Source of the DNA: Scytonema millei VB511283
Lineage (GTDB): Bacteria > Cyanobacteriota > Cyanobacteriia > Cyanobacteriales > Chroococcidiopsidaceae
Direction of reading: 5' to 3'
DNA: 64,000 bases
Assembly (NCBI RefSeq): GCF_000817735.3
Contig: NZ_JTJC03000002.1
Span: 566,242-630,241 of the forward strand
Made by a program: the position numbers and the translations under genes
The notes under the pieces: model-generated
Told to the model about the DNA's origin: nothing
The model's database searches: none
Seen by the model: the letters and a program-made list of their open reading frames with translations, nothing else
Shown here: piece after piece, positions 21,411 through 22,868 of the stretch
Position numbering within the stretch: position 1 is the stretch's first letter
Layout: each line of letters opens with the position of its first letter

Positions 21411-21520
21411 GAGAAAGTCAAAAGTTAAAAGTCAAAAGTCAAAACTTGAGAAAGTCAAAAGTTAAAAGTCAAAACTTGAGAAAGTCAAAAGTTAAAAGTC
21501 AAAAGTCAAAACTGAGGAGT
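21411..21520. repeat. AAAAGTC/AAAAGTT heptad array (three 30-37 nt units)
   Basis: Three units starting GAGAAAGTCAAAAGTTAAAA follow each other, built from heptads AAAAGTC and AAAAGTT. They start directly at the potB start codon, leaving no room for a normal ribosome-binding site. Confidence 0.85.
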
Positions 21521-21570
21521 CAGAAAACAGAAGATAGGAGACAGAGGTTAACATTACCATCGATCGCTGG

Positions 21571-21804
21571 TCACTGGTTACTGGTCACTGTTGCTCCGCC
21601 ACCAACAATTGTAACGACTTCTAGGCGATCGCCTGCTTGCAATTGCGTGTTATCCCAAAACTGACGGTGCAAGATTTCGCCGTTGTATTCTACTGCAACT
21701 AAGCGCGGGTTAAAGCCGAGCTGTTCTAGCGCCTCTGGAAGTCGAGCATTGTTAGCACAATTACGAGGTTCTCCATTCACTTGTAAGCTAATTTGTTCGG
21801 TCAT
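21571..21804 (-). CDS. thiS: Sulfur-carrier protein ThiS with a C-terminal extension
   Basis: This 77-residue ubiquitin-like protein shows the ThiS pattern (ISLQVNGEPRNC, RLVAVEYNGEILHR, GDRLEVVTIVGGG). In the family the C-terminal Gly-Gly is adenylated by ThiF and carries sulfur for the thiazole of thiamine. Here GGG is followed by ATVTSNQ before the stop, and these seven codons come from GTCACTG/GTTACTG repeat DNA. The tail would have to be cut off, or the gene is inactive. thiE lies 35 bp upstream, supporting the thiamine role. Confidence 0.87.
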   Translation of the reverse strand: MTEQISLQVNGEPRNCANNARLPEALEQLGFNPRLVAVEYNGEILHRQFWDNTQLQAGDRLEVVTIVGGGATVTSNQ

Positions 21805-21839: not shown

Positions 21840-22868
21840 TTATGGAGTACGGTTTTGGATGCGGGCGAGTTGCGCTAAAAAATACTGCGTTACTAAAGTA
21901 GGTTGCTCGGCTTGGACGATCGCTCTTACGACTGCAACTCTCTGCGCACCTGCGTTTAGCACTTCATTCACATTGTTAACGTCTATGCCACCGATCGCAA
22001 ACCAGGGAATGGAAACATTTTTAGCCACATGGCGAATGTATTCTAATCCTACTGGGGCTTTACCTGCTTTTGTAGGCGTTTCGTAGACTGGACCCACGCC
22101 AATATAATCAGCACCTTCCTGAATTGCCCGTTGCATTTCCTCTGGATTTGTGGTAGAACGCCCGATAATTTTCTGGGGTCCGAGGAGTTGGCGGGCGATC
22201 GCAATTGGCATATCCTGTTGTCCTAGATGCACTCCATCGGCATCTACTGCCAAAGCGAGATCGATGCGATCGTTAATTAAGAAAATTGCCCCGTATTGCT
22301 GACAAAGTTGGCGTAGTTGGCGGGCAATCTCTAGGCGATCGAGATCTGCGGTATTCTTATCGCGGTACTGTACGAGGCTCAGTCCTCCTTGCAGTGCTGC
22401 TTCTACCACATGAAACAACCCTTCTGTTGGAGAAGTCACTAAATATAAGTACGATTGCGCTAGTCGTTGGTGTCTTTGATAACCCAGTAAGTGACTTTCC
22501 AGGGTATAAACTCGATAACGCATCTGTTTAAAGGCAACTCCCATTTTCGGATTGTAGAGCTTACCGTATTCTTCTACAACTCGCAGAGCTTCTTGTACTC
22601 GGCAGAAATTGGCTTGTAGTAAAGTTCCTAAGCTAGATCGTCGCTCCTCTTGGGGATGAGTCAGGTCTGTCCCAGGATCGCCAGGAGTATTTCGTGCCGC
22701 TCGTAAATCTAGAGTATGCCAGCTAGCTAGTTCTTGGCGTAACTGCTTGCATTCATCGCTGAATTGGCTGCTATTTAATCCAAATCGACACCACTCTTCT
22801 ATAATCCGCAAGCCTTCACGGGCGCGGTCTAGATTCGCATCCAAAATTCGGCAGACAGCTGGCTGCAC
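21840..22868 (-). CDS. thiE: Thiamine-phosphate synthase with N-terminal ThiED-type domain
   Basis: This 342-residue protein has an N-terminal helical domain (about 1-130, with ILDANLDRAREGLRIIEEW) found in cyanobacterial ThiE, then the TIM-barrel enzyme with QYRDKN, LINDRIDLALAVDADGVHLGQQD, IIGRST and GADYIGVGPVYETPTK. It joins the thiazole and pyrimidine parts of thiamine. The start is GTG with GGAGAGG just upstream. It probably shares a transcript with thiS. Confidence 0.93.
   Translation of the reverse strand: MQPAVCRILDANLDRAREGLRIIEEWCRFGLNSSQFSDECKQLRQELASWHTLDLRAARNTPGDPGTDLTHPQEERRSSLGTLLQANFCRVQEALRVVEEYGKLYNPKMGVAFKQMRYRVYTLESHLLGYQRHQRLAQSYLYLVTSPTEGLFHVVEAALQGGLSLVQYRDKNTADLDRLEIARQLRQLCQQYGAIFLINDRIDLALAVDADGVHLGQQDMPIAIARQLLGPQKIIGRSTTNPEEMQRAIQEGADYIGVGPVYETPTKAGKAPVGLEYIRHVAKNVSIPWFAIGGIDVNNVNEVLNAGAQRVAVVRAIVQAEQPTLVTQYFLAQLARIQNRTP

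What the first reader, a model, noticed from the sequence alone, without database searches (positions are those of the whole stretch)
21571..21600. ThiS carries a repeat-coded tail after its essential Gly-Gly
In ThiS proteins the C-terminal Gly-Gly must be free to be adenylated and to carry sulfur. Here GGG is followed by ATVTSNQ and then a stop. The DNA for these seven codons (CACTGGTTACTGGTCACTG on the plus strand) is one of the GTCACTG-type heptad repeats common in this window. Either a protease trims the tail, or the protein has lost function and another ThiS serves.
Basis: partly seen in the sequence, partly recalled or inferred. Interest (0 to 1): 0.62.

Follow-up and report, generated by a model that had tools for sequence, protein, structure and literature searches.

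The report
Thiamine sulfur carrier with repeat-coded cap
A small protein that must end in a bare glycine pair to carry sulfur for making vitamin B1 carries seven extra residues read from repetitive DNA here, and a number of other cyanobacteria carry different extra tails in the same place, which suggests that these bacteria cut the tail off, perhaps with a ubiquitin-type protease.

Summary
The window's ThiS (21571-21804, minus strand) ends VTIVGGG-ATVTSNQ-stop, and a heptad array codes the tail. It is the only ThiS found in a 99.95% complete genome. One species of the genus has the same tail (ATVTSDQ); another stops straight after GGG. Tails of 1 to 77 residues follow the glycines in 27 cyanobacterial genomes read here. 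The ThiS body is under purifying selection in this genus, so 'lost function, spare ThiS' is not supported. All 27 genomes encode a Prok-JAB (JAMM) peptidase with its HxH-x7-SxxD motif, split over two frames in one; in 16 of 27 it lies just upstream of an E1-rhodanese. No tail was found in 56 JAB-lacking genomes, but by genus the association is not significant. Best reading: stop loss ran thiS into a repeat, and JAB trims the cap. Trimming is inferred. JAMM-trimmed capped carriers are known in natural-product pathways (PMC6006322); a capped thiamine ThiS with junk-DNA caps looks like a new variant.

The parts
21571..21804 (-). thiS, 77 aa, sulfur carrier protein for thiazole synthesis, with a 7-residue cap
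   Evidence: TIGR01683 7.3e-22 over residues 7-70; only ThiS found in the genome
21595..21603 (-). codons of the C-terminal Gly-Gly-Gly of the ThiS domain (residues 68-70)
   Evidence: GGG invariant in the 27 ThiS that I chose for alignment
21574..21594 (-). cap ATVTSNQ after the glycines; last block of the model (residues 71-77) has mean pLDDT 54, while 61 of 77 residues have 90 or more
   Evidence: structure prediction
21571..21573 (-). in-frame TGA, inside a CAGTGAC heptad
   Evidence: tail read in the three frames
21567..21590 (.). heptad array (CAGTGAC/CAGTAAC on the minus strand) that codes most of the cap and its stop
   Evidence: Tandem Repeats Finder; 9 pattern matches in the window against 0 in 100 shuffles
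21414..21511 (.). second heptad array (AAAGTCA/AAAGTTA) downstream of thiS
21840..22868 (-). thiE-type ORF of 342 aa directly upstream of thiS (label recalled from sequence; not run against a library)

Best explanation
In this cyanobacterium ThiS is made as a capped precursor. A stop straight after Gly-Gly-Gly was lost by a small insertion or substitution. The reading frame then runs into a neighbouring heptad array whose TGA stops it seven codons later; here the array stops the other two frames after 2 and 4 codons, so such accidents give short caps. The cap is harmless because a Prok-JAB (JAMM) metallopeptidase, encoded beside the only E1-rhodanese found in the genome, cleaves after the last glycine. 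The E1 can then adenylate and sulfurate ThiS, which passes sulfur to ThiG. Shown: the capped frame, its repeat coding, that no other ThiS is found, conservation of the body in this genus, recurrence of different caps in 27 cyanobacterial genomes, and a JAB with the zinc-site motif in all 27. Inferred: the direction of the stop change (loss here, or regain in the uncapped sister), that ThiS is cleaved, that JAB is the enzyme, and that the capped form cannot be adenylated before cleavage.
For: One ThiS only in a 99.95% complete genome; one E1 match only; ThiG present. Prok-JAB 8.3e-26 with HxH-x7-SxxD; the E1-rhodanese match starts 184 bases after the JAB match on the same strand. Same cap in G009, uncapped sister G008. 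Purifying selection on the body, dN/dS 0.078, 0.139 and 0.042. JAB present in 27 of 27 capped genomes (26 at E 1e-13 or better in one frame, 1 split over two frames), motif in 27 of 27, E1 just downstream in 16 of 27. Caps in 0 of 56 JAB-lacking genomes read; capped share of JAB-bearing genomes 8 of 68 (order sample, fully read) or at least 18 of 173 (union of draws); one-sided Fisher p 0.0067 and 0.0051. Cap predicted flexible. Precedents read as passages: capped carriers typically need a protease such as QbsD (PMC6006322); MoaX must be cut after its Gly-Gly (PMC4326299).
Against: No cleavage data. The JAB association weakens when relatedness is allowed for: by genus it is 5 of 43 against 0 of 12 (p 0.28) or 0 of 26 (p 0.086); within the order sample alone, 8 of 68 against 0 of 17 gives p 0.15. 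JAB is common anyway: 142 of 186 genomes of the class in the phylum draw. MoaD also carries tails in 2 of 79 genomes, so trimming, if it occurs, is not ThiS-specific. One capped genome (G406) has its JAB split over two frames. The E1 was not found within the stretch fetched around JAB in 11 of 27 capped genomes. JAB and thiS lie on different contigs in the own genome. PMC1779556 states a complete absence of JAB from the thiamine pathway (passage).
Confidence: 0.6

Rival explanations
1. The cap is trimmed, but by another enzyme (a general carboxypeptidase or a tail-specific protease), and JAB serves another substrate such as the third carrier beside threonine synthase.
For: Caps have no common sequence by eye, as expected for unspecific removal; the JAB association is not significant by genus; the protease that cuts MoaX was not identified in PMC4326299 (passages).
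Confidence: 0.22
2. The capped ThiS is non-functional or weak, and the cell obtains thiamine or thiazole by uptake or by another sulfur route.
For: Gly-Gly must be free for activation (established chemistry; stated for MoaD in PMC4326299, passages). Two MAGs of the order sample have broken ThiS frames (G409, G420).
Against: Purifying selection on the body between the two capped species of this genus and their uncapped sister; ThiG present; caps are shared by several species of one genus in g1, g17, g37, g40 and g172, so capped genes have lasted.
Confidence: 0.1
3. The cap is a real regulatory device: capped ThiS is a reserve that becomes active only when JAB processes it.
For: Caps persist in whole groups, for example four g37 species with caps NHQ, SEN, SDS and SGS.
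Against: Cap sequences and lengths vary, and uncapped species occur in the same genera g1, g2 and g5.
Confidence: 0.05
4. Sequencing or assembly error hides an earlier stop.
For: Repeats are error-prone.
Against: The genome G009 has the same cap with one substitution and one more heptad, and 25 further genomes have other caps.
Confidence: 0.03

Closest known systems
Capped sulfur carriers trimmed by JAMM proteases (QbsD; PtmS2 with PtmS1), PMC6006322 (passages)
   Same: Carrier with residues after Gly-Gly; a JAMM protease is encoded in the genome
MoaX, fused MoaD-MoaE of Mycobacterium, PMC4326299 (passages)
   Same: Internal Gly-Gly freed by cleavage, needed for activity
   Different: The downstream part is an enzyme subunit; protease unidentified there; the cofactor is Moco
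Cyanobacterial JAB + E1-rhodanese gene pair, row 4b of the table in PMC1779556 (passages)
   Same: The same kind of gene pair, listed there as an uncharacterised operon
   Different: That paper suggests that JAB might release fused ThiS/MoaD in general but says JAB is absent from thiamine pathways; the passages I read report no ThiS caps
TAACTGA heptad repeats, PMC4679880 (passages)
   Same: Heptads that stop all three frames in one orientation and overlap gene ends
   Different: Another unit (here CAGTGAC/CAGTAAC); no link to carrier proteins
Ubiquitin precursors with C-terminal extensions (recalled)
   Same: Residues after Gly-Gly removed by a peptidase before E1 activation
   Different: Eukaryotic signalling system

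Membership tests
ThiS (TIGR01683 / PF02597) | Full-length match to the ThiS model over the curated cut-off | tested here: met
   77.5 bits against 37.45, positions 1-64 of 64
ThiS (TIGR01683 / PF02597) | Free C-terminal Gly-Gly in the encoded protein | tested here: not met
   Seven residues follow; the mature form cannot be read from DNA
ThiS (TIGR01683 / PF02597) | ThiG in the genome | tested here: met
   PF05690 7.5e-111
Capped sulfur carrier with JAMM processing (QbsD / PtmS1 type) | Residues after Gly-Gly of the carrier | tested here: met
Capped sulfur carrier with JAMM processing (QbsD / PtmS1 type) | JAMM protease with intact motif in the genome | tested here: met
   PF14464 8.3e-26; HSHPNHPAIPSEFD
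Capped sulfur carrier with JAMM processing (QbsD / PtmS1 type) | Protease gene next to the carrier gene | tested here: not met
   JAB is on contig C10, thiS on C2; JAB lies next to the E1 instead
Capped sulfur carrier with JAMM processing (QbsD / PtmS1 type) | Cleavage after the last glycine | not testable with these tools
   needs mass spectrometry or an enzyme assay
Prok-JAB / JAMM peptidase | HxH-x7-SxxD part of the zinc site | tested here: met
   own genome and 26 of 26 other capped genomes
Prok-JAB / JAMM peptidase | Upstream glutamate | tested here: inconclusive
   a loose pattern for it was found in 24 of 27 capped genomes, not in L338, L339 and L353; no structure was modelled
Cyanobacterial heptad (STRR-like) repeats | Short arrays of period 7 scattered through the DNA | tested here: met
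   25 exact runs against 0 in 50 shuffles; many arrays. The name STRR is recalled

The most novel reading that the evidence does not exclude
Cyanobacteria as a group mature ThiS (and perhaps MoaD) by a JAB peptidase that works with a shared E1, as ubiquitin precursors are matured. This frees the C-terminus from selection, so that junk DNA, repeats and even a further 77-residue segment have repeatedly been fused onto an essential carrier. It would put JAB into thiamine synthesis, from which a 2006 survey excluded it.
Probability: 0.45. Interest if true: 0.66.

Novelty: new variant of a known kind. Interest (0 to 1): 0.52.

Why it matters
If true, it gives a function to an uncharacterised cyanobacterial gene pair (JAB + E1-rhodanese), shows a ubiquitin-like precursor-processing step inside vitamin B1 synthesis, and explains how stop-codon loss at an apparently untouchable C-terminus can be neutral. 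It also shows repeats that stop every frame acting as a safety net at a gene end. The main claim can be tested with two purified proteins and one mass spectrum.

Tried and rejected
Second ThiS in the genome: none found. Sequencing error: unlikely (G009). A tolerance special to ThiS: caps in 8 of 85 ThiS against 2 of 79 MoaD are not significantly different (two-sided p 0.10). A phylogeny of the three species of the genus, to tell gain from loss of the cap: pairwise identities over the aligned pieces (about 88-93%) do not settle it. A known domain in the 77-residue cap of L086: no Pfam match better than E 0.025, below its cut-off. A plasmid copy of ThiS: one distant match only. Papers on a capped thiamine ThiS or on ThiS trimming in cyanobacteria: none seen in the listings. 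These searches are weak: they cover open-licence PMC papers only, and in all but, which used the phrase 'sulfur carrier protein ThiS', the term ThiS cannot be told from the word 'this' or was not used. The structure prediction shows only that the cap is flexible; no complex was modelled and no fold search was run.

The stop-trap is not general: 14 of 19 heptad units tested stop every frame on at least one strand, 5 on neither; and in uncapped G008, DNA beyond its stop would run 10 to 19 codons to the next stop.

Rows dropped: seven of 20 matches were not ThiS (L105, L107, L120-L124). From the 90-genome order sample I dropped G409 and G420 (ThiS frame broken; both have JAB matches) and G416, G439, G444 (no ThiS match) before counting. 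For JAB-lacking I counted genomes with no match, or only matches of about 1e-8 or weaker. In solved structures, two of six matched chains (2k5p, 2lek) run 8 residues beyond the part aligned to the query; I did not check whether these are tags.

Full report
Observation. The ORF at 21571-21804 on the minus strand encodes 77 residues that end VTIVGGG-ATVTSNQ, followed by TGA. The NCBIfam ThiS model covers residues 7-70 and ends at the last glycine. Of six solved chains that match, four (2cu3, 1f0z, 1tyg_B, 5ztb) end at the residue aligned with Gly70; 2k5p and 2lek run 8 residues past the aligned part, not checked for tags. The cap codons lie in a period-7 array at 21567-21590. The window holds 25 exact period-7 runs of at least 21 bases, against none in 50 mononucleotide shuffles, and 9 matches of the double heptad against none in 100 shuffles.

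Only ThiS. The window lies in a genome of 5.97 Mb in 17 contigs, 99.95% complete. A PF02597 search finds three proteins: this ThiS, a MoaD-like protein that ends VSGG (TIGR01682 58.0 bits, below its cut-off of 66.15) and a MoaD-family protein beside threonine synthase that ends VAGG (TIGR01687 51.3 bits, over its cut-off of 49.5). A ThiS query finds one match. ThiG is present. There is one E1 match (PF00899) in the genome, in a protein that also has a rhodanese-like C-terminus (rhodanese label recalled from sequence).

Relatives. In the family, 18 of 19 genomes have ThiS; four carry residues after GGG: the window, G009 (ATVTSDQ), G015 and G001. G008, of the same genus, stops with TGA straight after GGG and runs into heptad-like repeats at once. 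The body is under purifying selection (dN/dS 0.078, 0.139, 0.042 between these three species). Among 80 named loci, six have caps: L028 (5), L062 (3), L072 (2), L086 (77), L089 (2) and L092 (17). This is a lower bound: G342 and G071, in the same draw, have caps that begin with T and were missed. In a sample of 90 genomes of the order, 87 have a ThiS match, 85 ends were readable and 8 are capped. In total 27 genomes with caps were read: 21 unnamed, counting the window's own, and 6 named.

How the cap arose (inferred). In the window the three frames after GGG meet a stop after 7, 2 and 4 codons. Heptads shift the frame by one each time, so a unit with a stop triplet on a strand stops every frame of that strand after at most six codons; this held for 14 of 19 units tested on at least one strand, and 5 have no stop on either. 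In G008 the next stops would come only after 10 to 19 codons. PMC4679880 (passages) reports that forward TAACTGA heptads stop all three frames and notes that they overlap gene ends. By eye, repeat arrays also supply or adjoin the new stop in G015, L028, L112, L072 and L089; other caps are not from heptads.

Candidate trimmer. The genome encodes a Prok-JAB of 159 residues with HSHPNHPAIPSEFD, and the E1 match starts 184 bases after the JAB match on the same strand. Matches among solved chains include a Mov34/MPN/PAD-1 family protein (2kcq) and JAMM1 (5lda, 5ld9); the NCBIfam desampylase model matches below its cut-off (67.6 against 130 bits). All 27 capped genomes have a JAB match with the HxH-x7-SxxD motif; in 26 it lies in one frame, and in G406 it is split over two frames of a metagenome assembly. 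The E1 lies just downstream in 16 of the 27 and was not seen in the stretch fetched (about 3.6 kb) in 11; it lies downstream in 4 of 4 further JAB loci, which were the best-scoring ones and have no known cap.

Test of association. Of JAB-lacking genomes, 17 in the order sample and 39 others were read, and all 56 end at the glycines (a fortieth genome searched has no ThiS match). Against 8 of 68 JAB-bearing genomes in the order sample this gives one-sided p 0.0067; against at least 18 of 173 in the union of draws, p 0.0051. The order sample alone (0 of 17) gives p 0.15; with 14 further genomes of the order (0 of 31), p 0.043. By genus it is 5 of 43 against 0 of 12 (p 0.28) or 0 of 26 (p 0.086), two genera of the order sample being mixed. 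In the phylum draw 142 of 186 genomes of the class have a JAB. The association fits the model but is not proof, because species are related and JAB is common.

Control. MoaD ends were read in 79 genomes of the order sample; two carry extra residues (G425, one; G432, seventeen), and both genomes have JAB. MoaD is therefore not strictly free of caps, which would fit a peptidase that serves several carriers but is against anything special to ThiS.

Known work, all seen as passages only. PMC6006322 says that carriers with capped C-termini typically require a protease, as exemplified by QbsD. PMC4326299 shows that MoaX must be cut after Gly82. PMC1779556 suggested that JAB might free ThiS/MoaD fused to other proteins, listed the cyanobacterial JAB + E1-rhodanese pair as an uncharacterised operon, and stated a complete absence of JAB from the thiamine and molybdenum/tungsten cofactor pathways. 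PMC3227635 describes Mec+ cutting the CysO-cysteine adduct. I saw no report of capped thiamine ThiS in the searches listed under Tried and rejected, whose limits are given there.

Verdict. A real and recurrent feature: the thiamine carrier is encoded as a capped precursor in two of three species of this genus read here and in 25 other cyanobacterial genomes. Most likely the cap is a neutral by-product of stop loss, here next to repeats, made harmless by JAB trimming. Confidence 0.6 for JAB trimming; about 0.85 that the cap is removed by some enzyme.

Noticed in passing
L086 2495-2935 (Aphanothece hegewaldii CCALA 016): ThiS continues past GGG into 77 residues without a Pfam match over cut-off; looks like a fusion to a further small ORF.
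   Followed up: partly
L269 (G432) and L249 (G425): MoaD proteins with 17 and 1 residues after Gly-Gly.
   Followed up: partly
G246:C238:159593-159775: A second, stop-ridden thiS-like stretch directly beside the intact thiS, perhaps a tandem relic.
   Followed up: no
L353 (G406): JAB gene split over two frames in a genome with a 17-residue ThiS cap; could be an assembly error or decay.
   Followed up: partly
L109 (G279): ThiS cap of 35 residues coded by a G-rich tandem repeat, rich in Gly, Glu and Arg.
   Followed up: no
L003 1498-1860: Third carrier (MoaD family, ends VAGG) beside threonine synthase; its role and its relation to JAB are open.
   Followed up: no
window, 25 exact runs: Dense period-7 arrays of many different units across the window.
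   Followed up: partly
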